DNA from: Rufibacter hautae
Lineage (GTDB): Bacteria > Bacteroidota > Bacteroidia > Cytophagales > Hymenobacteraceae
NCBI RefSeq assembly: GCF_008271695.1
Contig: NZ_VKKY01000002.1
Span: forward strand, 1,054,001-1,118,000
Length of the DNA stretch: 64,000 nt
Reading direction: 5' to 3'
Numbering within the stretch: position 1 is the first letter of the stretch; every line of letters begins with the position of its first letter. Below, piece by piece: positions 741-63,525 of the stretch. Both the position numbers and the translations under genes were made by a program. The notes below the pieces were generated by a model. That model saw only the letters and a program-made list of their open reading frames with translations, had not been told where the DNA came from and did not search any database.

Positions 741-786
741 GTTTTGAACCTGTTTTTTCAAAATCTACACGAAAACAGCCGTTTTT
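741..786. repeat. Dispersed palindrome copy 1 (degenerate)
   Basis: The left arm reads GTTTTGAACCTGTTTT and the right part GAAAACAGCCG, with a longer than usual centre. It matches the family consensus at both T/A blocks. Confidence 0.5.
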
Positions 787-978
787 AAATTGGGCTCTTT
801 TCTCCTTTCTGCCCCTATTTCCCTTAACTGAACTCCATTTTAACCGTTAGAAAGACAATTGAAAATGGTTCGTCTTTTCTGTTCGGTTTCATGGGCCTAC
901 CAAACGCCTTCAAGAAATTAGAAAAAGCGTAACTGGCGTCTGTTAAAAGAAAGTTTCACCAGTTCATTCACCGCCCCC

Positions 979-1506
979 ATGAACACACAAAATTCACTCG
1001 GGGCAGAAACGGCTGTACGGCCGCTGCTGCCAGAGACCAGAACCGTTACCCTCCGGGTGAACGGCACCACCCACCAACTCCAATTAGCTCCGTGGACCTC
1101 GGTACTGGATGCCTTGCGGGAGCACCTCCAGTTAACAGGCACCAAAAAAGGCTGCGACCATGGTCAATGTGGAGCCTGCACGGTGCTGCTCAATGGAAAG
1201 CGCATCAATTCCTGCCTTACCCTGGCAGTGATGCAGGAAAACAAAGAAATCACCACGGTAGAAGGCTTGGCACAGAATGGAGAATTACACCCGGTACAAC
1301 AAGCTTTTATTGACCACGATGCGTTCCAGTGCGGTTACTGCACCCCAGGACAAATCTGCTCGGTCATTGGCCTGGTAAACGAAGGGAAAGCAAAGACGCT
1401 GGACGACATCAAGGACCTCATGAGCGGAAATGTGTGCCGGTGCGGAGCCTATGTGAACATTGTAAAAGTGGCGCAGGAGGCCCTGGAAAAAAACACCGGA
1501 TTATGA
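979..1506 (+). CDS. paoA: (2Fe-2S)-binding subunit of a xanthine-oxidase-family enzyme, PaoA/YagT-like
   Basis: This 175-aa protein carries two [2Fe-2S] clusters that pass electrons from the molybdenum centre to the FAD subunit. Cluster I (plant-ferredoxin fold) uses Cys59, Cys64, Cys67 and Cys79, in GCDHGQCGACTVLL and the later NSC. Cluster II uses Cys118, Cys121, Cys153 and Cys155, in CGYCTPGQ and CRCGAY. E. coli PaoA has a long twin-arginine leader. Here the first 22 residues have no RR motif and no hydrophobic stretch, so the complex is probably cytoplasmic. The stop overlaps the next start as ATGA (1503-1506), indicating translational coupling. The symbol is by family resemblance; the substrate (aldehyde, purine or other) is not determined by the sequence. 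Confidence 0.88.
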   Translation: MNTQNSLGAETAVRPLLPETRTVTLRVNGTTHQLQLAPWTSVLDALREHLQLTGTKKGCDHGQCGACTVLLNGKRINSCLTLAVMQENKEITTVEGLAQNGELHPVQQAFIDHDAFQCGYCTPGQICSVIGLVNEGKAKTLDDIKDLMSGNVCRCGAYVNIVKVAQEALEKNTGL

Positions 1507-2495
1507 GACCATTCACCTTTACCCAATCCCAAGATGTAGACACCGCCGTACAGGAAGTCTCCAAGGAGGGCGCCAAATTCATTGCCGGCGGCACCAATCT
1601 GCTGGATTTGATGAAAATAGACGTCATGAGCCCCTCTCATCTGGTGGACATCACGCAAATAGCCTTAGACACCATAGAGGAAACCGAAGCAGGAGGAATC
1701 AGGTTAGGAGCCTTGGCCAAAAACGCCGACACTGCTTACCATGAACTGGTGGAAACCCGTTACCCGTTGCTTTCCCACGCTATTCTTGCCGGAGCTACCG
1801 CTCAGTTGCGCAACATGGCCACAGACGGCGGCAACCTGCTGCAACGCACCCGCTGCTACTATTTCTATGATACCCACACGCCTTGCAACAAACGGGAACC
1901 AGGCTCAGGCTGCTCAGCCATACAGGGCTACAACCGTGATTTAGCCATTCTGGGCACCAGCGAACATTGCATTGCCACCCATCCTTCTGATATGTGTGTA
2001 GCCTTGGCGGCGTTGGAGGCTACTGTTCAGGTAACCGGGAAAAACGGGGCTCGGTCTATCCCCTTTGCTAACTTCCACCGCCTGCCCGGTGACACCCCGC
2101 ACCTTGATTCCAACCTGCAACCTGATGAAATCATTACGGCCATTGAGTTGCCCGCCAACGGATTTGCCACACACTACACCTACTTGAAACTCCGGGACCG
2201 GGCATCGTACGCCTTTGCCTTGGTGTCAGTAGCCGCTGCGCTGGAATTGGAAGGTAATACAGTGAAAGAGGCGCGCATAGCGTTAGGCGGTGTGGCCCAT
2301 AAGCCGTGGCGCGTACCCCAGGCGGAAGCATTGCTGCACGGACAACAGGCTACGAGGGAAAATTTTCAAAAGGTGGCCGAAGCCTATCTGGAAGGCGCCA
2401 AAGGATTTGGCCACAACGATTTTAAAATAGAATTAGCCAAAAGGGCCATTGTGCGGGCGTTAGAACAAGCTACCAAAAAGGAGGCAACAGCATGA
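1503..2495 (+). CDS. paoB: FAD-binding subunit of a xanthine-oxidase-family enzyme, PaoB/YagS-like
   Basis: This 330-aa protein begins MRPFTFTQ, as FAD_binding_5 (CO-dehydrogenase flavoprotein) subunits do. FAD-loop motifs are IAGGTNLLDLM near residue 27 and TDGGNLLQR near residue 107. Between them and the C-terminal domain is a cysteine-rich insert (Cys118, Cys128, Cys137, Cys156) including PCNKREPGSGC, the signature of the extra [4Fe-4S] cluster that marks PaoB and 4-hydroxybenzoyl-CoA-reductase-type flavoproteins. The start is taken at the ATG in the ATGA overlap with paoA; the frame is open further upstream but that part overlaps paoA and is not family-like. Its stop again overlaps the next start (2492-2495). 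Confidence 0.88.
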   Translation: MRPFTFTQSQDVDTAVQEVSKEGAKFIAGGTNLLDLMKIDVMSPSHLVDITQIALDTIEETEAGGIRLGALAKNADTAYHELVETRYPLLSHAILAGATAQLRNMATDGGNLLQRTRCYYFYDTHTPCNKREPGSGCSAIQGYNRDLAILGTSEHCIATHPSDMCVALAALEATVQVTGKNGARSIPFANFHRLPGDTPHLDSNLQPDEIITAIELPANGFATHYTYLKLRDRASYAFALVSVAAALELEGNTVKEARIALGGVAHKPWRVPQAEALLHGQQATRENFQKVAEAYLEGAKGFGHNDFKIELAKRAIVRALEQATKKEATA

Positions 2496-4711: not shown

Positions 4712-4762
4712 ACGTTTTGCGCCTGTTTTTGACAAAATAGCCCTAAACAGGCGCAAACGTTT
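4711..4762. repeat. Dispersed palindrome copy 3, strong hairpin
   Basis: AACGTTTTGCGCCTGTTT and AAACAGGCGCAAACGTT pair with a single bulged T. It begins at the last base of the paoC stop codon and probably acts as its terminator. Confidence 0.75.
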
Positions 4763-4855
4763 GTCCGCTTTTGGTTGTAGCCAAATTGTGGTGTACATTT
4801 AAAATTGGCGCCTCTACAGAAAGTAAGTGGTTGCCCTTGATGAAAGATTAAACTG

Positions 4856-5095
4856 ATGGAAATACTCCTGTTTGGGATCACCCGGGAAATTGTAGGAGAA
4901 TCCACCTTAACGGTAGAACCTGAGGAAACGCTACAGACTGTAGGCCAATTGAAAGCATGGCTGGGGCAGCGGTATCCTGCCCTGCAAAAACTGAGTTCGC
5001 TGGCCGTGGCCGTTGACAGTGAATACGCCGATGACGCGCAGCCTCTTTCGCCGGGGCAGGAAGTGGCGCTTATTCCCCCGGTGAGCGGCGGGTAA
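4856..5095 (+). CDS. moaD: Molybdopterin synthase small subunit MoaD
   Basis: This 79-aa ubiquitin-like protein ends VALIPPVSGG. The C-terminal Gly-Gly is the tail that is adenylated by MoeB and then thiocarboxylated, to deliver sulfur to precursor Z (cPMP). Length and the PPVSGG ending are typical of MoaD. It is followed after 10 nt by moaE, its partner in the heterotetrameric synthase, and sits 144 nt downstream of the paoC-like gene, behind a probable terminator, so it likely begins a separate moaDEA transcript. Confidence 0.93.
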   Translation: MEILLFGITREIVGESTLTVEPEETLQTVGQLKAWLGQRYPALQKLSSLAVAVDSEYADDAQPLSPGQEVALIPPVSGG

Positions 5096-5105
5096 AAGAT
5101 AAAGC

Positions 5106-5516: not shown

Positions 5517-5519
5517 GCC

Positions 5520-6512: not shown

Positions 6513-6552
6513 TTGTAGGCTGGCTTTGATAGAGGTTGAAATAGCAAAAGCA

Positions 6553-6587
6553 TTTTAGGGCTGTTTTCGATAAAATGGACTTAAAAC
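6553..6587. repeat. Dispersed palindrome copy 4
   Basis: TTTTAGGGCTGTTTTC is followed by GATAAAATGGACTTAAAAC. This is one of the copies closest to consensus in the left arm. It lies 40 nt after the moaA stop. Confidence 0.75.
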
Positions 6588-6744
6588 AAAGGCAAATTTC
6601 TAAAAGACCTCCTGAGGCTTTTGGCTGATCAGGGCAAGTTCATTCTTCCTAATTTTGCTTCCTTATTCGAGTACAACCATCTGATTCGTTTCTCAACCAC
6701 TTTCCTGAAAACAGGCGATAAACGCTTATAACATAAGAAGTAAA

Positions 6745-9108: not shown

Positions 9109-10296
9109 ATGATATCTGTAGAAGAAGCCTTACAACTGGTGCTGCAGCACAAAGCCACGCTGATTATTGAAGAAGTAGACTTATGGCAATCTGTGGGCCG
9201 GGTTTTAGCCCAGGAGGTAGTTGCCGACCGCGACTTCCCTCCTTTTGACCGCGTCACGATGGACGGAATCGCTATCAATGCCCAAACTTTCGCCGTTGGC
9301 ACCAAGGCTTTCCCCATAGAGCAGATCCAGGCAGCCGGTGCCCCGCAGACTACCTTACAGAACCCAGATCATTGTATTGAGATCATGACCGGAGCCATGC
9401 TCCCGGCCAATACAGATGCGGTGGTACCCTATGAAGACTGCCTTCTGCAGGACCATACAGCCACGGTGCAAGCCCAACAAGTAGTTCAAGGACAGAACAT
9501 TCACCGCCAGGGTTCTGATAAAAAAGCGGGCGAAGTGCTGCTTTCCGGCGGGGTACAGATTACCCCTGCCATTGTGGGAACGCTTGCCTCGGTGGGATTG
9601 GCCAAAGTGAAAGTCTATGCAATGCCCAAGGTAGCCATCTGCTCTACCGGTGATGAGTTAGTGGAGATCCAAGAGACGCCGCTGCCGCACCAGATCAGGC
9701 GCTCCAACGCGTATATGCTGGCAGCCGCGTTACAGCAGGAGAACATTCAAGCCTCCCTGCACCATCTGCCCGATGTTCCTGAAACCATGAAGGCTAGCTT
9801 AGAGCAGATCATCGCAGAGCACGAGGTATTGCTCTTGTCCGGGGCCGTTTCTAAAGGCAAATTCGATTTTTTGCCGCAGGTTTTAGAGGCTCTGGGGTTT
9901 ACGGCTGTTTTCCATAGAATAGCCCAAAAACCCGGCAAGCCGATGCTGTTTGGTACGCTGCCCGTCAACAAGGTGGTGTTTGGGCTGCCCGGTAACCCGG
10001 TGTCCACGTTTGTGTGTTACCAGCTGTTTTTCAGGCCATGGCTGCGCGCTTCTCTGCACCTTACCCCAGTTACGGCTTTTGCCCAACTAGCCCTTCCTAT
10101 TTCTTTTAGGCCAGCCCTCACGTACCACTTACCGGTTAAGCTGCGCAACCACGAAGGCCTTTTACAAGCCACCCCCATTTCCAACACCGGTTCCGGGGAC
10201 CTGACAAGCATTCTGGAAGCCGATGGATTGTTAAGCTTGCCGCCGGAGCCACAGACTTTCCCAGCGGGAAGTGCCGTTCCACTTACGTTATTATAA
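9109..10296 (+). CDS. moeA: Molybdopterin molybdenumtransferase MoeA
   Basis: This 395-aa protein inserts molybdate into adenylated molybdopterin. It begins ISVEEALQLVL and carries RDFPPFDRVTMDGIA (the DG loop), IMTGAMLPANTDAVVPYED, CSTGDELVEI (the MoCF-biosynthesis domain), LLLSGAVSKGKFD and VFGLPGNPVSTFVC, all standard MoeA signatures in the standard order. The usual SGG-x-S motif reads SGAVSKGKFD. No mogA or moaB, the adenylyltransferase partner, is visible in the window. Confidence 0.95.
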   Translation: MISVEEALQLVLQHKATLIIEEVDLWQSVGRVLAQEVVADRDFPPFDRVTMDGIAINAQTFAVGTKAFPIEQIQAAGAPQTTLQNPDHCIEIMTGAMLPANTDAVVPYEDCLLQDHTATVQAQQVVQGQNIHRQGSDKKAGEVLLSGGVQITPAIVGTLASVGLAKVKVYAMPKVAICSTGDELVEIQETPLPHQIRRSNAYMLAAALQQENIQASLHHLPDVPETMKASLEQIIAEHEVLLLSGAVSKGKFDFLPQVLEALGFTAVFHRIAQKPGKPMLFGTLPVNKVVFGLPGNPVSTFVCYQLFFRPWLRASLHLTPVTAFAQLALPISFRPALTYHLPVKLRNHEGLLQATPISNTGSGDLTSILEADGLLSLPPEPQTFPAGSAVPLTLL

Positions 10297-10759: not shown

Positions 10760-10833
10760 AGAAAGCTGTTCAGGCACCTGATGATTTACAGGCTTTTCTG
10801 CCTGGCTGATGAATGCTACTAAATATTGGGCCT

Positions 10834-12814: not shown

Positions 12815-12852
12815 GTTTTAGGGCTTATTCTACGAAAAGGCCCTAGAAACAG
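12815..12852. repeat. Dispersed palindrome copy 5
   Basis: GTTTTAGGGCTTATTC and GAAAAGGCCCTAGAAAC flank a short centre. It lies between the two tandem aldo/keto reductase genes. Confidence 0.75.
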
Positions 12853-13796: not shown

Positions 13797-14092
13797 AGGT
13801 TCGTATTCTTCTAATAATGGGGCAAAACCCCTCAACCCAAAGTTAACAGGAATCATGTAGTAGGGCTGATTTCTTAAAAGTAACCCTAAAATGCTGCTAC
13901 TAGGAAAATACATTAGGAACGAAGGGTCTTCTAAGAAGATGTAGTCATTTAGCTAAATGATCCTAAGTTTACTTTTTGATTGGTTCTTTCAATTCTTTAT
14001 GATTTATACCTAGTTTGCTAAATGTAAATTTCTCCTCACTTTAAGACTCACTAGTTTTTCAATCCGCTTAATTGTAGGTTTTAAAATCAAAA
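13797..14092. other. Divergent intergenic region
   Basis: 296 AT-rich bp between a leftward and a rightward gene, so it must carry promoters for both. Apart from palindrome copy 6, no convincing motif is seen. Confidence 0.45.
13859..13892. repeat. Dispersed palindrome copy 6
   Basis: AGTAGGGCTGATTTC followed by TTAAAAGTAACCCTAAAAT. It sits about 60 nt upstream of the aldo/keto reductase start. Confidence 0.65.
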
Positions 14093-17740: not shown

Positions 17741-18271
17741 ATGGAGTTGAACCCGCTTATCCTAACGCTCACCCTTGACCCCGAGGCCGCTGAGTTCTTC
17801 ACCCGCCTACGCAGTCAGCATTTCCCGCCCGAACGGAATTACTTGCAAGCTCACCTTACCCTGTTCCACCACTTGCCTCCCACGGAGAAATCCATCAAAG
17901 ACGTTTTAGCAAGGGTTTCCGAAGAACAGGCGATAATCAACTTACAGGTGACAGACCTTATGAGCCTGGGAAGAGGGGTTGCCTACAGAATCAATAGTGG
18001 GGAATTGCAGACGATGCACAGGTTCTTACAAGAGCAATGGGCTTCGTTTCTTATACCGCAGGACAAACAGAAGCTTCGGCCGCACATCACCATCCAGAAC
18101 AAAGTAAAACCCGAGGAAGCCAAAGCCTTGGAGCAAAACCTGAGACAGACTTTCCAACCCTTCCAAATAAGGGGAATAGGATTTACCCTTTGGGAATACC
18201 AAGGCGGCCCTTGGCAGCTACTTCAGCAATTCCCTTTTAAGCCCGTTTTTGATAAAACAGCTCAAGAATAG
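17741..18271 (+). CDS. 2'-5' RNA ligase superfamily (2H phosphoesterase) protein
   Basis: This 176-aa protein has both H-x-T/S catalytic motifs of the 2H superfamily, HLTLFHHL near residue 33 and HITIQNKV near residue 112. It is more divergent than the ThpR gene at 34792. It would act on 2',3'-cyclic or 2'-5' phosphodiesters. The last 11 codons (PFKPVFDKTAQ) are encoded by a copy of the dispersed palindrome at 18234-18266, so the C-terminal tail derives from the repeat. It is divergent from the membrane protein upstream. Confidence 0.85.
   Translation: MELNPLILTLTLDPEAAEFFTRLRSQHFPPERNYLQAHLTLFHHLPPTEKSIKDVLARVSEEQAIINLQVTDLMSLGRGVAYRINSGELQTMHRFLQEQWASFLIPQDKQKLRPHITIQNKVKPEEAKALEQNLRQTFQPFQIRGIGFTLWEYQGGPWQLLQQFPFKPVFDKTAQE
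18234..18266. repeat. Dispersed palindrome copy 7, inside coding sequence
   Basis: CTTTTAAGCCCGTTTTTG and ATAAAACAGCTCAAG. It covers the 3' end of the 2H phosphoesterase gene and encodes PFKPVFDKTAQ just before the stop. Confidence 0.7.
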
Positions 18272-22733: not shown

Positions 22734-22909
22734 ATGTAGAAGTGGTATCAGTGATTTGGGGAATCAGCAAAATATTCCAAGTACTAAGTAAGCACATAAT
22801 GTTGGAATTGCATGAAAAGCGAATAAGGATCAAACGCTATTGTACCTTTTACTTTTGGAAGCTGTTGAAGGAATGGACTTTAGGATTTTCAGCTACTGTT
22901 CTGTTTTAT

Positions 22910-22935
22910 CTGTGTTTTTGAGAAAAGCCCTAAGA
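22910..22935. repeat. Dispersed palindrome copy 8 (partial)
   Basis: CTGTGTTTTTGAGAAAAG followed by CCCTAAG. The TTAGGGC end on the minus strand contains the TAG stop codon of the Mut7-C gene. Confidence 0.5.
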
Positions 22936-25190: not shown

Positions 25191-25225
25191 TTTTAGGGCT
25201 GGTTTACAGAAAATAGCTTTAAAAT
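25191..25225. repeat. Dispersed palindrome copy 9
   Basis: TTTTAGGGCTGGTTTACAG followed by AAAATAGCTTTAAAAT. It lies 22 nt after the photolyase stop. Confidence 0.75.
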
Positions 25226-26287: not shown

Positions 26288-26320
26288 TTTTTAGGCTGTT
26301 TTAAGAAATTCAGGCAAAAT
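26288..26320. repeat. Dispersed palindrome copy 10
   Basis: TTTTTAGGCTGTTTTAAG followed by AAATTCAGGCAAAAT. It lies in the convergent gap before msrA. Confidence 0.6.
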
Positions 26321-26373
26321 ATAGCAGGAAATGTCTTTGCTTAATTGATCAGGAAATAAGCGATTTTATAAGC

Positions 26374-28010: not shown

Positions 28011-28048
28011 GCTTTTCACCTGATTCTACAAAATCAGCCGCTAAAAGC
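28011..28048. repeat. Dispersed palindrome copy 11
   Basis: GCTTTTCACCTGATTC and AAAATCAGCCGCTAAAAGC around a short centre. It lies just after the DUF1622 gene and before the convergent lipoprotein stop. Confidence 0.65.
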
Positions 28049-30089: not shown

Positions 30090-30125
30090 GTTTTAAAGCT
30101 ATTTTTTAGAAAACTGCCCCAAAAC
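30090..30125. repeat. Dispersed palindrome copy 12
   Basis: GTTTTAAAGCTATTTTTTAG followed by AAAACTGCCCCAAAAC. It lies in the divergent gap upstream of the DUF4126 gene. Confidence 0.7.
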
Positions 30126-31721: not shown

Positions 31722-32057
31722 AGGAATCAGGTTTTGGGAAGGGGAATTCGCATGCACCTCAAGAACCAAGTACCTCTGCCTGTAAAATAATAGGAAGTAC
31801 TTTCAGTGTCTGCCACAGACCAACATGCCTGCGAAAGCCAGAATGGTTTTCGCTTTGTTTTTCAGAAAACAGGGTCAAAACAGGAGAAGATATCCCTTGG
31901 TACCACCCTTCATTATGGTTTGGCCCGGAAAGCCATAAGGCTACTTTCCTGAGAACCAGATAGGTTTATTTTAACGAACTTAAGCCAAGGCCGTTCAGAA
32001 AGCCACCTTGTTAAAGGCTATATAACTGTAAAATCCGTATTTACCCTGAGGTTCATT
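31722..32057. other. Intergenic region between two leftward genes
   Basis: 336 bp holding palindrome copy 13 and probably the promoter of the MBL gene. No ORF is supported. Confidence 0.45.
31847..31881. repeat. Dispersed palindrome copy 13
   Basis: TTTTCGCTTTGTTTTTC followed by AGAAAACAGGGTCAAAAC. Confidence 0.65.
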
Positions 32058-33746: not shown

Positions 33747-33780
33747 TTTTAGGGCTAATTTCCGGAAAACGGGCCAGAAA
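33747..33780. repeat. Dispersed palindrome copy 14
   Basis: TTTTAGGGCTAATTTCCG followed by GAAAACGGGCCAGAAA. It lies 12 nt upstream of the rluE start. Confidence 0.7.
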
Positions 33781-33825: not shown

Positions 33826-33862
33826 CTTTTTAGGGGTAGGTTCGGAAAAAGAGATAAAAATC
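33826..33862. repeat. Dispersed palindrome copy 15
   Basis: CTTTTTAGGGGTAGGTTCG followed by GAAAAAGAGATAAAAATC. Two copies lie within 120 bp here (with copy 14). Confidence 0.6.
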
Positions 33863-34007: not shown

Positions 34008-34820
34008 ATGCAAGCCACGCAAACCGCCACCCGCACTTGCCCCAACTGTTCTGCCCCTTATGAACAAACCCAAAGTTATTGCCCGTCCTGCGGACAAAGC
34101 ACCCACTTGCACCGGCTTACGGTAGGACATATCCTGCACGAGTTCTTCCACGCGATCTTCCATACAGACACCAGCATCTTGGGGGTCATCAAACATCTGA
34201 TGGTGAGGCCTGGGCATATTGCCAGAGCCTATGTAGACGGAAAACGGAAGAGCCTCTACAACCCCTTCAACTTTCTGGTGGTGTTGGTGGCCTTGTCCAT
34301 CCTGATCATCAACCTTTCTGGCGTCGATGTATTCCAGGCCAAAAACGGCAACCCTGTGGCCAACCTCATGACCAAACATTTCAACCTGGTTATTTTCTTT
34401 ACCGTGCCGCTCACTGCTTTGTACACCTCCCTCCTGTTCAGGAAACAAGGTGTCAACTTTGCCGAGGCTGCCGTGCTTGCCTGCTACACCGCCGGCGAAC
34501 GCACGGTCTTCTTCCTGCTGCTGGTCATCCCGCTGATGAAGTTCTTCCCTGAACATCACCTAGCCATCATTTGGGCCTATCTAGGATTGTACGCCGTGTA
34601 TTATGCGGTGGCTTGCCTGCAATTCACGGGGCAGAGATCGGTTCTTGGGTTTTTCAAAGGCCTCTTGCCCACCATCCTGCTCCAGGTTTCTTTGTACCTG
34701 CTAATTTTTCTTGGGCATTCACTTATACCACATCCTGAAATAAACCCTTATAAGCCTGTTTTCTGGAAACAAGCCCTAAAAGCCCTCCTTGCTATCCTAG
34801 GGAAAGTGTTTGCGCGTTAA
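34008..34820 (+). CDS. DUF3667 family protein
   Basis: This 270-aa protein has an N-terminal zinc ribbon (Cys11, Cys14, Cys25, Cys28 in CPNCSAPYEQTQSYCPSC), then HEFFHAIFHTDTSILGVIKHL and RPGHIARAYVDGKRKSLYNP, the DUF3667 signature, and four to five membrane helices. The C-terminal PYKPVFWKQALK is encoded by a copy of the dispersed palindrome at 34747-34782. The gene's last 29 nt overlap the convergent thpR gene. Function unknown. Confidence 0.9.
   Translation: MQATQTATRTCPNCSAPYEQTQSYCPSCGQSTHLHRLTVGHILHEFFHAIFHTDTSILGVIKHLMVRPGHIARAYVDGKRKSLYNPFNFLVVLVALSILIINLSGVDVFQAKNGNPVANLMTKHFNLVIFFTVPLTALYTSLLFRKQGVNFAEAAVLACYTAGERTVFFLLLVIPLMKFFPEHHLAIIWAYLGLYAVYYAVACLQFTGQRSVLGFFKGLLPTILLQVSLYLLIFLGHSLIPHPEINPYKPVFWKQALKALLAILGKVFAR
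34747..34782. repeat. Dispersed palindrome copy 16, inside coding sequence
   Basis: CTTATAAGCCTGTTTTCTG followed by GAAACAAGCCCTAAAAG. It encodes PYKPVFWKQALK near the C terminus of the DUF3667 protein, in the same frame as the coding copy at 18234. Confidence 0.75.
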
Positions 34821-41720: not shown

Positions 41721-41760
41721 CTGTTTCGGAGCTGTTTTGCTGAAAACGGCTCCGAAACAG
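41721..41760. repeat. Dispersed palindrome copy 17, strong hairpin
   Basis: CTGTTTCGGAGC (41721-41732) pairs perfectly with GCTCCGAAACAG (41749-41760). The arm sequence differs from consensus but both arms changed together. It lies 20 nt after the TonB receptor stop and probably terminates it. Confidence 0.8.
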
Positions 41761-45234: not shown

Positions 45235-45269
45235 TTTTTGGCCTTCTTTTCAAGAAAGAGGTTTAAAAC
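45235..45269. repeat. Dispersed palindrome copy 18
   Basis: TTTTTGGCCTTCTTTTCAAG followed by AAAGAGGTTTAAAAC. It starts 4 nt after the QorB-like stop and overlaps the beginning of the terminator at 45264. Confidence 0.6.
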
Positions 45270-48046: not shown

Positions 48047-51000
48047 TTAATCCCGGTTATACAACTTGGTCCACTCGCGCAGCTGATCCTCGGTTTGCTT
48101 GTTGATCTGACCCGGCATTAAGCGCCAGCCCCAGTTGCCTTCGCCTTTACCGGGAGTATTCATGCGGCCCAGTTCATCAATGCCCAGAACGTCTTGCAGT
48201 GGCAGGATGGCAGTTTTCGCCACAGAGGCATAGGCCAGACGGGCGAAGACCCACCAAATGTCATCTTCGCTTAGGCTGCGGCCCACGTAGTGCTCGATTT
48301 GCTGGTGGAACTCCTTGCCTTCGTTGCGGTACCAGCCCAAGGTGGTGTTGTTATCATGGGTACCAGTGTAGGCGATGAAGTTGCGGGCGTAGTTGTGCGG
48401 CATGTACGCGTTCTGCGGCATCTCGTCGCCCCAGGCGAACTGCAGGATCTTCATGCCCGGTAGGTTGAAATCATCGCGCAGTTTCAGCACCAGGTCGTTG
48501 ATCTCACCCAGGTCCTCGGCAATGAACGGAAGGCTGCCCAGCTCCTTCTCCACGAAGGTGAAGAAATCGGCGCCCGGCCCTAGTTTCCACTCGCCTTTTT
48601 TGGCGGTGGTTTCCCCGGCGGGTACTTCCCAGTAATCGGCGAAGGCCCGGAAATGGTCTAAACGCACTATGTCAAATAGCTCCATGTTCTTGCGCAAACG
48701 GCCAATCCACCAGCCGTAGTCCTGCTCTTTGAGTACCTCCCACTTGAATACCGGCATGCCCCAAAGCTGACCGTCTTCTGAGAAATCATCGGGTGGCACG
48801 CCCGCTACGCCTGTCATCTGCCCCTGCTCGTCCACGGCAAAGATCTCGCGGTTACCCCAAACATCTACAGAGTCATAACTGATGTAGAACGGCATGTCAC
48901 CGAACATCTGGATGCCGCGGTTGTTGCAGTACGTGCGCAGGCGCTTCCACTGTTTGTTGAAGATGAACTGCACCCATTTGGTTTTGTCTACCAGATCGGC
49001 GTTATCCTTGGCCAGTTTCTCCAGCGCCTCCGGGTCACGTTGCTTGTACTCATCGGCCCATTGAAACCAGGCGCTGCCGCCGTTCTGCTCTTTCAATAGC
49101 ACGTACAGTGCAAAGTCATGGAGCCAACTGGCCTCTGAGCCGCAGTAATCAATGAACTGCTGCTGCAGCGTAGGGAAATCACCAGACTTGAACGTCTGCC
49201 AGGCTTTTTCCAGTAACTCATCTTTTACGCGCTGGGCCTGCACATAGTCCACGTTGCCGGTCTGCGGCAGGTGGTGCTGGTTCAGGTCGGCCTCGTTCAG
49301 CAAGCCTTCTTTGGCCAGCAGCACCGGACTGATGAGCAACGGATTGCCCGCCCGGCTGGAGATGGAGCTGTACGGTGAGTAACCCTGCCCTGCCTCAATG
49401 GGATTGAGCGGCAACAACTGCCAGTACTTCTGGTTGCTGGCCTGCAGGAAATCAGCGAATTTACGCGCCTCTGGTCCCATGTCGCCAATCCCGAAGGCCG
49501 ATGGCAGTGAGGTGATGTGCAGCAGGATTCCCGCGCCGCGCTCGTTCTGTGCCTGCAGTTTGAGCAAGGCCAGCGGGAAAATTCCGAACAAGTCGGCCAC
49601 GCTCAGTTCATGCGCGTAATTGCCGGTGCTCCGGATGAACATGTCCTGCCAATCCTTTGGTGCGTCTTCCGGGATGATCACCTTGGTGTCTTTCCAGTCG
49701 ATGTCCTGCACGGTTTCCACGCCTTGCGCTTTGGCCAGGGCGGCCAGGTGCAGCGGTACGGCTACCACGTACCAGGTACGCAGGTGTTTCCGCACGAAAG
49801 CCAGCACATGGTCTTTGTATTCACCTTCCACCGCCAGCGGCAGGTATTCGCCTTTGGCAAAAAGGTCGGCGTTGTTTTTGCGCTCGGTGAACAGGGTGCG
49901 GGTGAGCCACAGTTTGATGCGGGCATCATAGCGGTTATCCCAGAGTTGCTCCCACAGCACATCCTGCTTGTTGAGGTCATAGTCATGGAGTTCCTCCAGC
50001 CATGCCTGCCGCTGCTCATAGTTCACCGCCCGGCGGTTGTCTGGGTCTACCAAGCTGAAGTCCCACAGCTCGGTGCCTTGGTAAACATCCGGAATGCCCG
50101 GTGTGGTGAATTTCAGGAGCGTCTGGCTCAAAGAGTTCACAATCCCGAAATCGGTGGTTTTGGCCCTGAATTCCTCAAAACGGGCCCAAAACGGACGGCT
50201 CCTGTCCAGCAGTTTCACCGCGAAGTTCTTCGTGGCGGTTTCGTATTCCTCGTTGGGGGTGGTCCAGTAGGAATTGACTTTGGCTTCCCGCAGGGCTTTC
50301 TGCAGGTATTCCTGTACGCGGTTCTCAAAATCATCCTCGTCCTGGCCGGGCATTGGGAACGCGCCCAACAAGGTCTGGTAGATGAGGTATTCGTCGTTGA
50401 CGCTGGGCGCATCGTTCTGCTTCAGGTCTTGGTTCAGCTCGCGCCATTCCTGCACGGCAGCGGTCCACTCCTCTGGTAATTCGGTAAGCACGTTCAGGCG
50501 GGCGCGGACGTCCTCGCCGCGTTTGGTGTCATGCGTGGAGGTTCCGTTGATGGCTAGTGGCCATTTCTGCCGCCGCTCCTGCATGGCCGTATGGAATTCC
50601 TCGGCGCTCATCCCGAAGGCTTCGGGTGCATCCCCCACTTCGTTGTGCCCGATAAACCGGTTGTAGGTGTACATGATGGTGTCTTCCACCCCTTTGGCCA
50701 TGAGCGGACCACTGAACTGCATCAGGCGCTGGTAGAACTTCTGCGAGCGCTCCAGGTACGTATCGTCCTCGCCTTCAGGGGCAGCCCCCAGAATCGCTCT
50801 TTCCAGCAACTCTACGGCTCCGGCCATTTCGGGCTTACTTTCGCGAATTCGGTTGAAAATCAGCTGCACGGCTTCGGCCTCAGCGCCGTCCAGCGGCATC
50901 TGATTTCCATAATAGCGGTACACCGGGCACTGAATCAGGAACTCCCCGATGGCTGCTTTCATGGTCTGGGGCTCCACGCTGCTCAGCACTTCTTCATCTA

Positions 51001-52279
51001 CCAATCGCTGGTGCAGGAACAGTTGGTAAAGGTTCTCCAGTTCACCGCCCATGTGCTCGTTCAGAATGTAGGCTTTCTTCTCATGGATTTGCTCCTGCAC
51101 CTCGGCACCCTCGCCTACCAGCTGGTGGTAGAGTTGGTTGAAAGCTTCCTCGCCGGGTTTGTAGGTAAAAAGGTTGTTCACCAACGAAAGGAAATCATAG
51201 CCGCTGCTGCCCTGGATGGGCCAGTTCTGCGGAAGTTCCTCACCGGGTTCCAAGATTTTCTCTACTACGATATAGGTTTCATCGCCGGCCAGTTCGCGCA
51301 GTTGCTGCAGGTACCCGGTAGGGTCATACAGGCCGTCTACGTGGTCAATGCGGAGGCCCTGGAATACACCTTCGTCCTGAAGTTGCTTGATGTACTGGTG
51401 ATAGGTAGAAAATACCTCGGGGTCCTGGATGTTGAGGCAGATGAGCCCGTTCACCGTAAAGAACCGCCGGAAGTTGATCTGTGAATCGGTTTCCTGCCAA
51501 TGGCAGAGTTGGTACACTTGTTCCTGGGCTAATTGCAACAGGCGGTCCTTGTCTTGGTTGAAGGCCTGCAGACTCGCCTCCACCGATGTCTGTACCACGT
51601 CGTTTTTCATCAGTGACGTGAGTTGCTGCCGGAACTCATCCCATTTCAAAGAGTAGGTCATAGGCTCCTCGGACTGGTGCGCTTGCTCCAGTTTCTCCAG
51701 GAGTTGGTCAATTGCCTGGTTGGGCTCTCCCTCTCCTTTCAATAAGGTCTCATAAGAGCGTGGGCTCAAGGGATAGGCACTGTCATAGTACTTGAACACC
51801 AGACGCATCTGCTCCTCGTCAAAGGCCACCTGCAGTTCGCCGTTTTGCACCACTTCTTCCAATTTCGCCCCTAAAAACGGCACCATCACCCGGCCGTTGT
51901 ACAAGGAGCTGGTCCACCCTATGTCAAAGAATGTATGGTATTGGCTCAAGGTCCCTTTCTCCAGCACATCTATCAACCAGGGGTTGTTAGGATGGTAGGC
52001 CATATGGTTCGGCACGATGTCCTGTAGCCAACTGATGCCGTTTTCCTTCAAGTGCCCGCTTACCGTTTTCAACTGCTCCTCGGTCCCTACTTCGGGATTC
52101 ACGCGGTGCGGATTCACCCCGTCATACCCGTGGGTACTGCCCGGCGTGGCCTCAAAGATGGGCGACGCATAAATGGTGCTCACCCCCAATTTCTGTAGAT
52201 ATGGAATAATGCGCTCAAAGTCCTGAAAGGTAAACTCTTTGTGGAACTGCAAGCGGTACGTCGCGACAGGGTTATGCAT
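48047..52279 (-). CDS. treY-malQ: Malto-oligosyltrehalose synthase / 4-alpha-glucanotransferase fusion (TreY-MalQ)
   Basis: This 1410-aa protein joins two enzymes. The TreY half (~1-900) opens ATYRLQFHKEFTFQDFERII and has GLRIDHVDGLYDP (nucleophile Asp), IVVEKILEPGEELP (acid Glu) and GTSTHDTKRGEDVRARL. The MalQ half (~925-1410) starts RGAGILLHITSLPSAFGIGD and has IVRLDHFRAFADYWEVPAG, PFIAEDLGEIN and YTGTHDNNTTLGWY with the GH77 catalytic residues. TreY turns the reducing end of maltodextrin into a trehalose linkage; TreZ (next gene upstream) releases trehalose; MalQ reshuffles short glucans back into usable lengths. The fusion is known from other Bacteroidota. Confidence 0.95.
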   Translation of the reverse strand: MHNPVATYRLQFHKEFTFQDFERIIPYLQKLGVSTIYASPIFEATPGSTHGYDGVNPHRVNPEVGTEEQLKTVSGHLKENGISWLQDIVPNHMAYHPNNPWLIDVLEKGTLSQYHTFFDIGWTSSLYNGRVMVPFLGAKLEEVVQNGELQVAFDEEQMRLVFKYYDSAYPLSPRSYETLLKGEGEPNQAIDQLLEKLEQAHQSEEPMTYSLKWDEFRQQLTSLMKNDVVQTSVEASLQAFNQDKDRLLQLAQEQVYQLCHWQETDSQINFRRFFTVNGLICLNIQDPEVFSTYHQYIKQLQDEGVFQGLRIDHVDGLYDPTGYLQQLRELAGDETYIVVEKILEPGEELPQNWPIQGSSGYDFLSLVNNLFTYKPGEEAFNQLYHQLVGEGAEVQEQIHEKKAYILNEHMGGELENLYQLFLHQRLVDEEVLSSVEPQTMKAAIGEFLIQCPVYRYYGNQMPLDGAEAEAVQLIFNRIRESKPEMAGAVELLERAILGAAPEGEDDTYLERSQKFYQRLMQFSGPLMAKGVEDTIMYTYNRFIGHNEVGDAPEAFGMSAEEFHTAMQERRQKWPLAINGTSTHDTKRGEDVRARLNVLTELPEEWTAAVQEWRELNQDLKQNDAPSVNDEYLIYQTLLGAFPMPGQDEDDFENRVQEYLQKALREAKVNSYWTTPNEEYETATKNFAVKLLDRSRPFWARFEEFRAKTTDFGIVNSLSQTLLKFTTPGIPDVYQGTELWDFSLVDPDNRRAVNYEQRQAWLEELHDYDLNKQDVLWEQLWDNRYDARIKLWLTRTLFTERKNNADLFAKGEYLPLAVEGEYKDHVLAFVRKHLRTWYVVAVPLHLAALAKAQGVETVQDIDWKDTKVIIPEDAPKDWQDMFIRSTGNYAHELSVADLFGIFPLALLKLQAQNERGAGILLHITSLPSAFGIGDMGPEARKFADFLQASNQKYWQLLPLNPIEAGQGYSPYSSISSRAGNPLLISPVLLAKEGLLNEADLNQHHLPQTGNVDYVQAQRVKDELLEKAWQTFKSGDFPTLQQQFIDYCGSEASWLHDFALYVLLKEQNGGSAWFQWADEYKQRDPEALEKLAKDNADLVDKTKWVQFIFNKQWKRLRTYCNNRGIQMFGDMPFYISYDSVDVWGNREIFAVDEQGQMTGVAGVPPDDFSEDGQLWGMPVFKWEVLKEQDYGWWIGRLRKNMELFDIVRLDHFRAFADYWEVPAGETTAKKGEWKLGPGADFFTFVEKELGSLPFIAEDLGEINDLVLKLRDDFNLPGMKILQFAWGDEMPQNAYMPHNYARNFIAYTGTHDNNTTLGWYRNEGKEFHQQIEHYVGRSLSEDDIWWVFARLAYASVAKTAILPLQDVLGIDELGRMNTPGKGEGNWGWRLMPGQINKQTEDQLREWTKLYNRD

Positions 52280-52372
52280 AGGTTGATGTTTTGGGGATAT
52301 GGAAATAGCCAGAGGTGATAATGAATCTTTGTGTGGCTTGTCTTACTAGTAAGGCCATGTAGTGTACGGCGG

Positions 52373-52408
52373 TTTTGGCCGGTTTTACGGAAAATGACCT
52401 TAAAAGAG
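52373..52408. repeat. Dispersed palindrome copy 19
   Basis: GTTTTGGCCGGTTTTACG followed by GAAAATGACCTTAAAAG. It lies about 95 nt upstream of the treY-malQ start. Confidence 0.65.
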
Positions 52409-52827: not shown

Positions 52828-52870
52828 AATGGTTTAGGGGCTTCTTTTTGAAAACAGCCCCTAAACCATT
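52828..52870. repeat. Dispersed palindrome copy 20, strong hairpin
   Basis: AATGGTTTAGGGGCT (52828-52842) and AGCCCCTAAACCATT (52856-52870) form a perfect 15-bp stem. It lies 12 nt beyond the treZ stop and probably terminates the glgX-treZ transcript. Confidence 0.85.
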
Positions 52871-57106: not shown

Positions 57107-57141
57107 AAAAAAATAAGCCACCCCGGATACCCGAAGTGGCT
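57107..57141 (-). terminator. Rho-independent terminator of the NADP-GAPDH gene
   Basis: Read on the minus strand: AGCCAC, an inner CGG/CCG pair, then GTGGCT, followed by TTATTTTTTT. It lies about 40 nt after the stop. Confidence 0.8.
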
Positions 57142-57145
57142 TTGA

Positions 57146-57176
57146 GGCCATTTTAGCCAAAACAAGCCTAAAACAG
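57146..57176. repeat. Dispersed palindrome copy 21 (short form)
   Basis: GGCCATTTTAGCC followed by AAAACAAGCCTAAAACAG. It abuts the stop codon of the NADP-GAPDH gene. Confidence 0.5.
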
Positions 57177-60672: not shown

Positions 60673-60688
60673 TCTTTATATTAAACTA

Positions 60689-60729
60689 AAAAGGAGAAGG
60701 TCAGGCAAAATGCCTGACCTTCTCCTTTT
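60689..60729 (+). terminator. Terminator after gltA, 19-bp perfect stem
   Basis: The arms at 60689-60707 (AAAAGGAGAAGGTCAGGCA) and 60711-60729 are perfect complements with a 3-nt loop. The T-rich 3' arm provides termination. Confidence 0.9.
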
Positions 60730-60742
60730 CTAAGCCTTTCTG

Positions 60743-60777
60743 GTTTAAGGGTTATTTTCGAAAATCGACTTTAAAAC
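60743..60777. repeat. Dispersed palindrome copy 22
   Basis: GTTTAAGGGTTATTTTCG followed by AAAATCGACTTTAAAAC. It lies between the gltA terminator and the convergent YwqK-like gene. Confidence 0.7.
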
Positions 60778-60841
60778 ATTAAGCTTAATTAGTACAGGTG
60801 GTAGGGACGAGAATATATTAATCCTTATCTCTAATTAAAGT

Positions 60842-61336
60842 CTACTTTACCCCTTCAGTAACTACCGGTTTGCCAGAGATAGGTTGCTGGGACATGGCTT
60901 TGCCCCGTTGGTAAGCAATCCAGCCCCGGAAAGTACCTGTGGAGTCATAGTATTCCCAGTTGCCGTGCCATTTGTACATGAGCAGGTTATTTTCCTCAAA
61001 GAGGAAAGCCAGACCTTCGTGCGAGACCTTTCCATTAGGGTGGTAAAAGGTTGTTTTGATGCGTTTGAGTTTGGGCTCGTACTTCTCCAGGCGTTCTAGT
61101 TGGCCGTTCTCAGAATAGGTTTTCCAGGTTCCTCGTTCCTGTCCATTCCTGAACCGGCCGGTGTACATGAGTTGATCGGGTTTATGGTCATAATAGGCGC
61201 GCCACTTCCCTTGCCGATTTCCTTCTTTATTGACCTGGTTCCATTTCCAGGGCCAGGGAAAGCCATGGCCTACAGCCGGAACCAACATAAACACTATTAC
61301 CGCAAGTACCCAGATCTCTCTTCTTAGAATTTGCAC
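60842..61336 (-). CDS. Secreted YwqK/MORN-like repeat protein (tandem copy 2)
   Basis: This 164-aa protein has a signal peptide (IWVLAVIVFMLVPAVGHG) and, just after it, a WPWKWN motif. The mature part has repeated beta-hairpins, GKWRAYYDHKPDQLMYTGRF, GTWKTYSENGQLERLEKY, YHPNGKVSHEGLAFLF and GNWEYYDSTGTFRGW, as in YwqK/MORN_2 antitoxin-like repeats. It is clearly related to the gene just upstream (61390) and probably arose by tandem duplication. Function unknown. Confidence 0.75.
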   Translation of the reverse strand: MQILRREIWVLAVIVFMLVPAVGHGFPWPWKWNQVNKEGNRQGKWRAYYDHKPDQLMYTGRFRNGQERGTWKTYSENGQLERLEKYEPKLKRIKTTFYHPNGKVSHEGLAFLFEENNLLMYKWHGNWEYYDSTGTFRGWIAYQRGKAMSQQPISGKPVVTEGVK

Positions 61337-61389
61337 AGATTGGAATTTATAGCCTTTAAATGATATAATCTCTGAAAGGAATATTTAAT

Positions 61390-61896
61390 TTATTTACGGC
61401 CTCGCACACTGCCAAAGACCGGAGTGTTAGTCGTAGGGTTTCCTTTTACGAAGGTTTTCACGCCCAAGGGCCGGCCCTCCAAGTCAAAGTACTCCCAGTC
61501 TCCCTCCCAGTAGAATTGAACCCCGCCGTCCTCGGCATCGCGGAGGTAAGCCATCCCGCGGTGTGAGACTTTCCCGTTGGGGTGGTAATATACTGTTTTA
61601 TAGCTTTTGTCGCGGCGCTTTATCTTCTCGGTGAAGTAAAGGTTACCATCGGCAGTGAAGGTTTTCCAGACGCCTACCTCTTTGCCGTGCCGGTACCTGC
61701 CTTTGTAATGCAAAACCTTCTCCTCGTAGTCATGGAAGGCCCGCCAGCGGCCGTTTTTCAGCTGCTTGGCATCATAGCGGTTCCAGCTCCAAGGCCAAGC
61801 CTGGGCAGGTGGACAGACGAAGATTAGTCCCTGAAATATGGTTACAATCATCCAGGTTCTGGGGGAAAGCGAAGGGTGGTTTAGCGTCTTTTCCAT
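61390..61896 (-). CDS. Secreted YwqK/MORN-like repeat protein (tandem copy 1)
   Basis: This 168-aa protein has a signal peptide (WMIVTIFQGLIFVCPPAQA) followed by WPWSWN. Its repeats, NGRWRAFHDYEEKVLHYKGR, GVWKTFTADGNLYFTEKI, YHPNGKVSHRGMAYL and GDWEYFDLEGRPLGVKTFV, align one for one with its neighbour. The start at MEKTLNH (61896) is preferred to 61917. The gap to copy 2 is 53 nt. Confidence 0.75.
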   Translation of the reverse strand: MEKTLNHPSLSPRTWMIVTIFQGLIFVCPPAQAWPWSWNRYDAKQLKNGRWRAFHDYEEKVLHYKGRYRHGKEVGVWKTFTADGNLYFTEKIKRRDKSYKTVYYHPNGKVSHRGMAYLRDAEDGGVQFYWEGDWEYFDLEGRPLGVKTFVKGNPTTNTPVFGSVRGRK

Positions 61897-62049
61897 GGTA
61901 AAATGGGGATAGAACAAGCTACAGATGAGAAAACGGAAGCTTAAAATTTAATCTTCAAATTATCTTCTTTAAAACGAAATATTCACCATCTTAGGTATCA
62001 AGGACGTGCGTCTTTGCATGGCTATTCTTCCACCTTTAAATCCGTTCGT

Positions 62050-63426
62050 GTGCAGACAGTTAGTAAACCCCGCAAACGAGCCGCTAAGTCGGCTGGTGAG
62101 GCAACGAAACAGAAAAAAGCCTTTGTGTTGGACACATCCGTCATCTTGTACGACCACAGCGCCGTGGAGCATTTCGGGGAACATGACGTGGCCATCCCCA
62201 TCACGGTGCTGGAGGAACTGGACAACTTCAAAAAAGGAAACGACATCAAGAACTTTGAGGCGCGGGAGTTTATCCGCTACATAGACAACCTTTCCTCGCA
62301 GCACATGCTCCAGAGTTGGATTCCGTTGGAAGGCTCTAACAAAGGACGGTTTAAAGTGCTGATGGGCAACGGATCTCCAATTGACGCGGAGAAGATCTTC
62401 AACGAAGACAAAGCCGATCACAAGATCCTGAACGCTACCCTGTCCCTACAGCACGAAATGCCCGACCACCGGGTTACCCTGGTGACAAAGGACATCAACC
62501 TGCGGCTTAAGGCCCGAGCCCTCAATTTATCCGCGGAGGATTACGAGACCGGCAAGATCCAGAACGTAACCAACCTGTACCGCGGCAACGACTTGGTAGA
62601 GGATATTCCGCATACGGTGATCACCAAGCTGTACGAGGAGGGCGAGTGCCCGGTGGAGGAAGCCCTGCCCAATCCGCCCAAAGACAACCACTACTTTATT
62701 CTGCGCAGCGCCAAATCTTCTGCCCTGGCGTATTACAACCCCGAGGACCGGATTCTGGAACGCGTAGACAAGCCGCATGCCGTGGGCATCAAACCCCGCA
62801 ACGCCGAGCAGACCTTTGCCTTGCACGCCATCCTGCACCCTGATATCAAACTGGTTTCGATCCAAGGCGTGGCCGGAACCGGCAAAACTTTGCTGGCCTT
62901 GGCCGGTGCGTTGGAACAACGGGAAGTGTACCGGCAGATTTACCTCGCCCGCCCCATCATTCCGCTCAGTAACCGGGACCTGGGTTTCCTGCCCGGCGAC
63001 GTAAACTCAAAAATTGGGCCTTACATGGAGCCATTATGGGACAACCTCAAGTTCATCCAGAACCAGTTTCCCGAGCACAGCAAGGAAAGCAACCGCATCA
63101 AAGAAATGGTAGAGGATGACCGCTTAGTCATTACACCGTTGGCGTATATCAGAGGTCGGAGCTTGTCTAACATCATCTTCATCGTGGACGAGGCCCAGAA
63201 CCTGACCCCGCACGAAATTAAAACGATTATCTCCCGAGCCGGCGAAAACACCAAGATCATCTTCACCGGTGACATCTACCAAATAGACACACCCTACCTG
63301 GACAGCCAAAGCAACGGCCTCTCCTACCTCATTGACAAAGTGAAGAACCATCCGTTGTACGCCCACGTGACCCTGCAACGCGGCGAGCGCTCTGAACTAG
63401 CCAACTTGGCCAACCAGCTTCTTTGA
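62050..63426 (+). CDS. PIN-PhoH family ATPase / RNase protein
   Basis: This ~458-aa protein has an N-terminal PIN domain (AFVLDTSVILYDHSAVEHF with a catalytic Asp, then VTLVTKDINLRLKARAL) and a C-terminal PhoH ATPase. The ATPase shows Walker A GVAGTGKTLLALAGAL, then PIIPLSNRDLGFLPGD, and Walker B IIFIVDEAQNLTPHE. The pair is thought to act as an RNA helicase-nuclease. No ATG is available upstream of the conserved region: GTG at 62050 (then QTVSKPRKRA) or TTG at 62014 are the options, and GTG is preferred. Confidence 0.92.
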   Translation: MQTVSKPRKRAAKSAGEATKQKKAFVLDTSVILYDHSAVEHFGEHDVAIPITVLEELDNFKKGNDIKNFEAREFIRYIDNLSSQHMLQSWIPLEGSNKGRFKVLMGNGSPIDAEKIFNEDKADHKILNATLSLQHEMPDHRVTLVTKDINLRLKARALNLSAEDYETGKIQNVTNLYRGNDLVEDIPHTVITKLYEEGECPVEEALPNPPKDNHYFILRSAKSSALAYYNPEDRILERVDKPHAVGIKPRNAEQTFALHAILHPDIKLVSIQGVAGTGKTLLALAGALEQREVYRQIYLARPIIPLSNRDLGFLPGDVNSKIGPYMEPLWDNLKFIQNQFPEHSKESNRIKEMVEDDRLVITPLAYIRGRSLSNIIFIVDEAQNLTPHEIKTIISRAGENTKIIFTGDIYQIDTPYLDSQSNGLSYLIDKVKNHPLYAHVTLQRGERSELANLANQLL

Positions 63427-63471
63427 TTGTTGGTTGTTGATTGTTAGTTGTTTTAGAACAAGCCTGTAAAG

Positions 63472-63525
63472 TAAGAATCCCTTTTGGAGCCGTTTTATGT
63501 AAAACAGCCCCAAAAGGGATTCTTA
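63472..63525. repeat. Dispersed palindrome copy 23, strong hairpin
   Basis: TAAGAATCCCTTTTGGAGC (63472-63490) and GCCCCAAAAGGGATTCTTA (63507-63525) form a 19-bp stem with one mismatch, around CGTTTTATGTAAAACA. ATTGTT-type repeats lie outside it on both sides. It separates convergent phoH and dinB genes. Confidence 0.8.

What the first reader, a model, noticed from the sequence alone, without database searches (positions are those of the whole stretch)
741..63525. A ~35-bp interrupted palindrome dispersed about 23 times through the window
Reading the gaps shows one sequence over and over: left arm TTTTAGGGCTGTTTTC, 0-4 nt, right arm GAAAACAGCCCTAAAA, with drift. Copies start at about 741, 4081, 4711, 6553, 12815, 13859, 18234, 22910, 25191, 26288, 28011, 30090, 31847, 33747, 33826, 34747, 41721, 45235, 52373, 52828, 57146, 60743 and 63472. 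That is about one per 2.8 kb, nearly all between genes and many within 40 nt of a stop codon. No transposase is linked. I know of no described family with this consensus. It could be a miniature mobile palindrome, a lineage-specific terminator or mRNA-stability element, or a protein-binding site.
Basis: partly seen in the sequence, partly recalled or inferred. Interest (0 to 1): 0.82.

Follow-up and report, generated by a model that had tools for sequence, protein, structure and literature searches.

The report
Genus-wide palindromic gene-end DNA site
The bacterial genus Rufibacter carries, mostly in the gaps just after its genes, a mirror-image DNA sign of roughly 36 letters repeated an estimated 2,600 times per genome, which looks like the docking site of a still unidentified DNA-binding protein and not like a mobile element or a simple RNA hairpin.

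Summary
In 797.6 kb of this Rufibacter genome a two-arm model finds 354 copies against 6 in shuffled sequence; about 2,600 per genome by extrapolation. The core pattern TTT-N9-TTT-N4-AAA-N9-AAA is strongly enriched in 16 of 16 genomes of the genus and at or near control level in 184 genomes of five sister genera; a stricter pattern gives at most 4 hits in 394 other Bacteroidota. Copies lie mostly after stop codons and recur in the same gaps in other species. The T/A tracts are conserved above the flanks, the GC core is not. Core positions of the two arms do not covary, so for most copies the palindrome seems to act as duplex DNA. Each arm is a direct repeat of about CYGTTTT, period 11 bp. About 13% of copies (44 of 334) are also nested in, or form, true hairpins. 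No sign of recent copying, RAYT linkage or REP tags. Best reading: binding site of a dimeric or tetrameric protein in the spacers between transcription units, as boundary or termination aid. The protein was not identified.

The parts
742..775 (.). motif copy
   Evidence: score 27.6, spacer 2; copy in the same gap in G051 and G042
4715..4748 (.). motif copy just after the stop at 4711
   Evidence: score 34.8; copy in the same gap in G051, G042
6553..6586 (.). motif copy
   Evidence: score 38.6; does not align to a copy in G051, though that gap holds one
9897..9930 (.). motif copy inside the moeA-like gene 9109-10296
   Evidence: score 31.5; MoeA domains; kept in G051 and G042 with core changes, not in G012
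   Evidence: score 29.2; in G051, G042, absent in G012
12816..12848 (.). motif copy
   Evidence: score 29.4; in G051, not in G042 or G012
13858..13891 (.). motif copy
   Evidence: score 28.9
18235..18268 (.). motif copy at the end of a called ORF
   Evidence: score 34.7
22904..22935 (.). weak motif copy, spacer 0
   Evidence: score 22.7
25191..25224 (.). motif copy
   Evidence: score 37.3; copy in the same gap in G051
26288..26321 (.). motif copy, no longer recognised in G051
   Evidence: score 27.1; alignment
28012..28045 (.). weak motif copy between convergent genes
   Evidence: score 23.6; in G051
30091..30124 (.). motif copy in a divergent gap
   Evidence: score 37.2; in G051, not in G042
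31847..31880 (.). motif copy
   Evidence: score 33.9; in G051
33747..33780 (.). motif copy
   Evidence: score 36.9; in G051
33828..33859 (.). weak motif copy, spacer 0
   Evidence: score 20.8
34748..34781 (.). motif copy near the end of a called ORF
   Evidence: score 33.1; the G051 counterpart scores only 15
41724..41757 (.). motif copy forming a near-perfect inverted repeat
   Evidence: score 31.5; sequence
   Evidence: score 26.5; weak copies in the same gap in G051, G042
45235..45268 (.). motif copy beside a bidirectional terminator-like hairpin whose T tract it shares
   Evidence: score 30.0
50158..50191 (.). motif copy inside the alpha-amylase/GH77 fusion gene 48047-52279
   Evidence: score 33.4; Pfam; kept in G051, G042, G012
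52372..52405 (.). motif copy
   Evidence: score 30.5
52833..52865 (.). motif copy in a longer inverted repeat
   Evidence: score 33.2; sequence
57140..57173 (.). motif copy
   Evidence: score 31.7; a copy in the same gap in 9 of 9 genomes where the gap was recognised
60744..60776 (.). motif copy downstream of citrate synthase, beyond its own terminator-like hairpin
   Evidence: score 33.0; hairpin visible, 8 of 10 genome rows have a copy of score >=18 in this gap
63482..63515 (.). motif copy downstream of phoH, hairpin class
   Evidence: score 39.3

Best explanation
Each copy is a two-fold symmetric recognition site in duplex DNA of about 36-40 bp made of four like sub-sites (two direct repeats 11 bp apart, facing their mirror image): roughly CYGTTTT-N4-CYGWTTT-Y-NN-R-AAAWCRG-N4-AAAACRG. 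A sequence-specific protein, with two or four like DNA-binding domains per site, most likely binds about 2,600 such sites per genome in the spacers between transcription units, mainly just after gene ends. There it would act as a boundary: a bound body that separates neighbouring units topologically and/or backs up termination for both directions. Shown: existence, genus restriction within the sample, geometry, position, conservation of the tracts, lack of core covariation. Inferred: that a protein binds, its oligomeric state, and the boundary role. My split: about 0.75 that this is a protein site on duplex DNA; about 0.5 that the role is a general spacer boundary and not one of the rivals.
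For: Fixed spacing (277 of 392 at 2 nt, 85 at 1 nt). Strong half-sites are mostly paired: at score >=17, 14 unpaired of 214 (1 in shuffled sequence). TTTN9TTTN4AAAN9AAA alone: 138 hits vs 1 reversed control in the held sequence. Between G000 and G051 (19 copies) the TT/AA positions are 133/152 (87.5%) identical, against 4282/6646 (64.4%) for spacer DNA outside the motif and 1039/1472 (70.6%) for TTT/AAA runs there; the core is 187/304 (61.5%). Over all 262 copies with 2-nt spacing, unfiltered, core positions 6-11 pair as often as permuted arms (z -0.7 to 0.4); after setting the hairpin class aside, 749 pairs vs 766 expected in 227 copies and folding energy equal to arm-swapped chimeras (-7.5 vs -7.1, n=104; -7.1 vs -7.9, n=54; this filtered test is partly circular, since the class is defined by low pairing). 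Internal 11-bp direct repeat (column correlation 0.73 at period 11, next best 0.37). 18 of 19 motif-bearing and 14 of 16 motif-free gaps agree between G000 and G051. Present in 80-91% of convergent gaps of 80-400 bp and 58-74% of tandem gaps of 120-400 bp, nearer the upstream stop in 74% of 132 tandem cases. Two of four in-gene matches checked are kept in other species.
Against: No binding protein was found; two nucleoid-protein families tested show no genus-specific member. Arm positions 3 and 4 do covary in the unfiltered set (z 6.2 and 4.4; position 4 still z 2.2 after filtering), which I put down to the hairpin class without a separate test of position 3. Divergent spacers carry fewer copies (14-55% over gaps of 80-800 bp) and gaps over 400 bp fewer than medium ones (convergent 56% at 400-800 bp). 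Information content (about 32 bits, from selected copies) far exceeds the 11 bits needed to find 2,600 sites. Spacing along the chromosome is only marginally more regular than random (CV 0.74 vs 0.81, untested).
Confidence: 0.5

Rival explanations
1. Roadblock terminator: the same protein-bound site mainly stops RNA polymerase at gene ends in both directions, as the genus's own termination aid.
For: Bias to 3' ends: 159 of 329 copy-to-stop distances are 0-60 nt. In tandem gaps of 100-500 bp in G000, 69 of 161 gene ends have the motif and no detected intrinsic terminator (101 motif, 32 both). DNA-bound proteins can terminate transcription (passages of PMC10310618).
Against: Intrinsic terminators are not depleted against three sister genera sampled evenly: convergent 69/122 in G000 and 14/28 in G017 vs 4/18, 14/20, 11/24; tandem 42/161 and 12/43 vs 10/44, 8/39, 7/41 (reversed controls 9/122, 5/28, 3/18, 1/20, 0/24 and 12/161, 6/43, 4/44, 2/39, 6/41; ends of convergent gaps count twice). 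An earlier sample of orthologous Pontibacter and Botryobacter loci had suggested depletion. Terminators and motif co-occur. Copies also occur in genes and divergent gaps.
Confidence: 0.2
2. DNA uptake-sequence-like signal spread by molecular drive, with inverted pairs recruited as terminators, as in Neisseria and Haemophilus.
For: Thousands of copies, lineage-specific, enriched at gene ends, a subset in hairpins; DUS and USS do the same (passages of PMC3630211; PMC5217627). Information content exceeds need.
Against: Known uptake sequences are single non-palindromic units (recalled); here strong half-sites are mostly paired, the invariant letters are T/A tracts, and only 46 of 353 copies are in called genes. 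Competence was not examined.
Confidence: 0.12
3. RNA hairpin (intrinsic terminator or mRNA-stabilising stem).
For: 44 of 334 copies have extended stems or near-perfect arms; after phoH 14 of 15 genome rows and at the next tandem site 12 of 12 rows carry stems, judged by eye, whose outer parts differ between species yet still pair; this class folds at -20.7 vs -10.8 kcal/mol for swapped arms (n=35; the class is chosen for pairing). Covariation at arm positions 3-4.
Against: Core positions do not covary in the unfiltered set and the core is not conserved. In the consensus the right arm ends in A and is not followed by a U tract.
Confidence: 0.1
4. Miniature mobile palindrome (MITE/REP) or its remnant.
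For: High copy number, intergenic, one genus; a gain of a hairpin-type copy in G012 at the place of window 10760-10833.
Against: Nearest-neighbour identity between 252 copies is close to independent draws from the matrix (30.1 vs 29.8 of 40; SD of the mean 0.15, so about 2 SD above). The losses aligned are base changes in place. Y1_Tnp (RAYT-type) has no match in G017, which has 752 exact tract matches, and has matches in 28 of 33 sister-genus genomes. No terminal GTAG/CGTC.
Confidence: 0.06

Closest known systems
REP/BIME elements (GTAG- and CGTC-tagged repeats, RAYT-associated)
   Same: Short palindromes of 20-40 bp, high copy number, intergenic, sometimes intragenic (PMC3733652, passages read)
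   Different: No GTAG/CGTC tag, no core pairing in most copies, no RAYT correlation, no clear copy families
Inverted-pair uptake sequences at terminators (Neisseria DUS, Haemophilus USS)
   Same: Lineage-specific, thousands of copies, found at gene ends and in terminator hairpins (PMC3630211 and PMC5217627, passages read)
   Different: Here two halves at fixed spacing, and T/A tracts instead of a core word are invariant
Protein roadblock sites (Reb1 in yeast; LacI, Fis and others in bacteria)
   Same: Sequence-specific DNA-bound protein that can limit read-through (PMC10310618, passages and a reference title read)
   Different: No bacterial case spread over most gene ends is known to me (recalled); the protein here is unidentified
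Chromosome-architecture sites such as parS and matS (recalled)
   Same: Palindromic or dimer-bound sites with conserved positions
   Different: About 2,600 sites instead of tens, and longer (sizes recalled)
11-bp direct-repeat boxes of OmpR/PhoB-type winged helices, or two-HTH AraC sites (recalled)
   Same: Two sub-sites one helical turn apart per half-site; a CTGT-like word
   Different: Resemblance only; no such protein was tested

Membership tests
REP element (GTAG or CGTC superfamily) | GTAG or CGTC tetranucleotide at one end | tested here: not met
   656 copy ends: GTAG 12, CGTC 6, against 38 and 36 (scaled) in control windows about 300 bp away
REP element (GTAG or CGTC superfamily) | base-paired stem | tested here: not met
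   core positions 6-11 do not covary over 262 unfiltered copies; met for 44 of 334 copies
REP element (GTAG or CGTC superfamily) | RAYT transposase (GTAG type) | tested here: not met
   PF01797: 0 matches in G017, 1-4 in the other 7 Rufibacter searched, and matches in 28 of 33 sister-genus genomes. Whether any such gene is flanked by the motif was not tested
MITE / insertion-sequence derivative | copy families from recent duplication | tested here: not met
   nearest-neighbour identity close to independent draws, about 2 SD above
MITE / insertion-sequence derivative | target-site duplications at empty/filled sites | tested here: inconclusive
   few gains and losses; those aligned are substitutions, and the G012 gain has flanks I could not align by eye
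Intrinsic terminator | GC-rich stem followed by a U tract | tested here: not met
   most copies lack a stem. Separate terminator-like hairpins cluster beside the motif: 158 calls within 130 bp against 27 at positions shifted by 400 bp; 29 against 1 with the U tract within 5 nt of the motif start
DNA uptake sequence | single non-palindromic unit, common in genes (recalled) | tested here: not met
   unpaired strong half-sites are few (14 of 214 at >=17; 1 in shuffle); 46 of 353 copies in called genes
DNA uptake sequence | biased uptake in transformation | not testable with these tools
   needs experiments
HU/IHF-type (DNABII) site | genus-specific DNABII protein | tested here: not met
   8 of 8 Rufibacter searched have one strong PF00216 match, as sister genera do (G017 a second, weak one); PF18291 gives one weak match each, at the same gene where compared (G000)
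Operator of a symmetric DNA-binding protein | two-fold symmetry, fixed spacing, tracts conserved above background, no core covariation | tested here: met
   positions 3-4 covary in the unfiltered set
Operator of a symmetric DNA-binding protein | a protein that binds it | not testable with these tools
   no candidate identified
Described RNA family | Rfam match | tested here: not met
   0 matches in the window at gathering scores

The most novel reading that the evidence does not exclude
Rufibacter has a dedicated, genus-specific boundary system: one DNA-binding protein sits on a four-sub-site palindrome at most transcription-unit ends (about 2,600 places), separating neighbouring units and blocking read-through in both directions, a bacterial counterpart of Reb1- or CTCF-like boundary proteins.
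Probability: 0.3. Interest if true: 0.92.

Novelty: new variant of a known kind. Interest (0 to 1): 0.72.

Why it matters
Bacterial gene ends are thought to be handled by RNA hairpins and Rho. A sequence-specific duplex-DNA site at most of the gene ends sampled in one genus, with tracts under selection, would mean either a protein layer that separates transcription units or a new kind of chromosome-organising site. Because it is present in every Rufibacter genome searched and missing from the sister genera searched, its origin and its effect on transcription and chromosome structure can be tested by comparison.

Tried and rejected
RNA structure: covariation, WC+GU counts, oriented pair counts and folding energy against arm swaps; kept for about 13% of copies. 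The filtered tests are partly circular; the unfiltered one is the main evidence. Terminator replacement: seemed supported from a small set of orthologous Pontibacter and Botryobacter loci, dropped after even sampling of three sister genera. RAYT/REP. HU/IHF-type protein, suggested by tract geometry: not supported; two of the seven Rufibacter rows picked a wrong ORF, so that comparison rests on five. Analogous spaced palindromes in other Cytophagales loci: none as strong, by a simple 4-mer test. Motif in viral contigs with a stricter pattern: 0. tRNA ends: too few (2 of 6 with a copy within 250 nt 3'). Spacing regularity: slight, untested. A second repeat (TTGTTGATTG) noticed round phoH is not enriched genome-wide (6 vs 4 in shuffle). 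Literature: nine searches listed no title or abstract start on this motif; lists were partial for (10 of 13 shown; 15 of 17; 12 of 28). Passages were seen in PMC5217627, PMC3733652, PMC10310618 and PMC3630211; none was read whole.
Full report
What is there. The window is a stretch of a 5.84-Mb Rufibacter genome (G000:C2:1054001-1118000; the nearest named relatives by PhoH are Rufibacter latericius, Rufibacter sp. XAAS-G3-1 and R. immobilis at 96, 94 and 91% identity). In 797.6 kb of the genome a symmetric matrix finds 354 copies at score >=18 against 6 in an order-3 shuffle. The bare tract pattern TTTN9TTTN4AAAN9AAA occurs 138 times there against 1 for the reversed control, and 1,059 against 12 in the whole genome. 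By extrapolation I estimate about 2,600 copies per genome.

Distribution. All 16 genomes of the genus have 531-1,710 exact tract matches (controls 6-21). In 184 genomes of five other genera of the family counts are 0-39 with controls 0-38; the two highest, 39 and 38, have controls of 17 and 18 and belong to one genus, g4. In 395 Bacteroidota genomes (G000, three of the same family already, and others) a slightly stricter pattern gives 521 (control 0) in G000 and at most 4 in any of the 394 others. So it is confined to one genus as far as sampled.

Anatomy. The arms are 16 nt with 2 nt between them in 277 of 392 copies and 1 nt in 85. TT at arm positions 1-2 and 12-13 is 95-98% conserved, a flanking G is at 78%, and the core between is mixed G/C. 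The half-site is itself a direct repeat of about CYGTTTT with period 11 bp, so each site has four like sub-sites. Strong half-sites are mostly paired: 14 of 214 at score >=17 stand alone.

Place. 46 of 353 copies lie in called genes; the rest follow stop codons (median 55 nt, n=329) more closely than they precede starts (median 125 nt, n=241). They are in 80-91% of convergent gaps of 80-400 bp, 58-74% of tandem gaps and 22-53% of divergent gaps of 120-400 bp, and in fewer of the longest gaps. In a second species, G017 (200 kb), 26 of 28 convergent and 33 of 43 tandem gene ends with gaps of 100-500 bp carry one, convergent gaps counting twice. Gene calls come from a simple codon-bias caller, not from a curated annotation.

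Conservation. In 16 genomes compared round phoH the motif recurs in the same gaps with changed letters: downstream of phoH itself a copy is seen within 230 nt in 15 of 16, one of them (G037) degraded. Between G000 and G051, 18 of 19 motif-bearing and 14 of 16 motif-free gaps agree; with G042 10 of 15 and 11 of 13; with G012 6 of 8 and 4 of 7; with G006, where only 8 orthologues were found, 1 of 2 and 3 of 3 (short gaps included). In G000-G051 alignments of 19 copies the tracts are 87.5% identical, other spacer DNA 64.4%, TTT/AAA runs elsewhere 70.6%, the core 61.5%; in the more distant G042 (16 copies) 64.8, 45.5, 49.3 and 39.8%. Selection appears to be on the tracts.

Two classes. In 44 of 334 copies the palindrome extends into a stem or the arms are near-perfect. 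After phoH 14 of 15 genome rows, and at the neighbouring tandem site 12 of 12 rows, have such stems, by eye, with different outer sequences that still pair; these are probably RNA hairpins, perhaps terminators. Over all 262 copies with 2-nt spacing, without any filter, core positions 6-11 pair no more than permuted arms (z -0.7 to 0.4), whereas positions 3 and 4 do (z 6.2, 4.4) and the outer flank weakly. With the hairpin class removed the core total is 749 against 766 expected and folding equals that of arm swaps; that filter makes those two tests partly circular. Terminator-like hairpins cluster beside the motif and may use its outer T tract, yet intrinsic terminators are not depleted against sister genera.

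What it does. Symmetry with fixed spacing, tract-only conservation, the missing core covariation and an 11-bp sub-site period point to a protein on duplex DNA, probably a dimer or tetramer. Its place after gene ends suggests a boundary between transcription units, with roadblock termination as the nearest rival. The protein is not identified: RAYT-type transposases, HU and HU-HIG families do not track the motif.

Known relatives. It behaves partly like REP elements and like inverted uptake sequences at terminators, but fails tests of both. Nine searches of the held literature listed nothing on it; most subscription papers and preprints are outside that library.

Noticed in passing
window 63427-63583 and counterparts in L120-L135: The spacer after phoH is flanked on both sides by TTGTTGATTGCTGATTG-like runs that mirror each other, in many of the 16 genomes; the words are not enriched genome-wide.
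   Followed up: partly
L001, L012, L013, L015 and others, beside motif copies: A recurrent terminator-like stem with base ACAGAAG...CTTCTGTTTT: 12 matches over both strands in G000 sequence (a bidirectional one counts twice), 0 in a shuffle, 2 in 200 kb of G017, 0 in 200 kb each of three sister genera.
   Followed up: partly
window 48047-52279: 1,410-aa fusion of an alpha-amylase-type (treY-like, my reading) domain and a GH77 4-alpha-glucanotransferase, with a motif copy in its coding sequence.
   Followed up: partly
L037 (contig C6, 7,526 bp): A small separate contig with three motif copies, two well inside ORFs, and BatA/DUF4199/glycosyltransferase genes.
   Followed up: partly
L035, L036 (20 kb each of contigs C4, C5) and L006: Only one motif copy each, below the usual 6-15 per 20 kb; perhaps plasmids or recently acquired DNA.
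   Followed up: no
G012 counterpart of window 10760-10833: A motif copy with a long perfect outer stem that the three other species with this gap lack: an apparent gain of a hairpin-type copy.
   Followed up: partly
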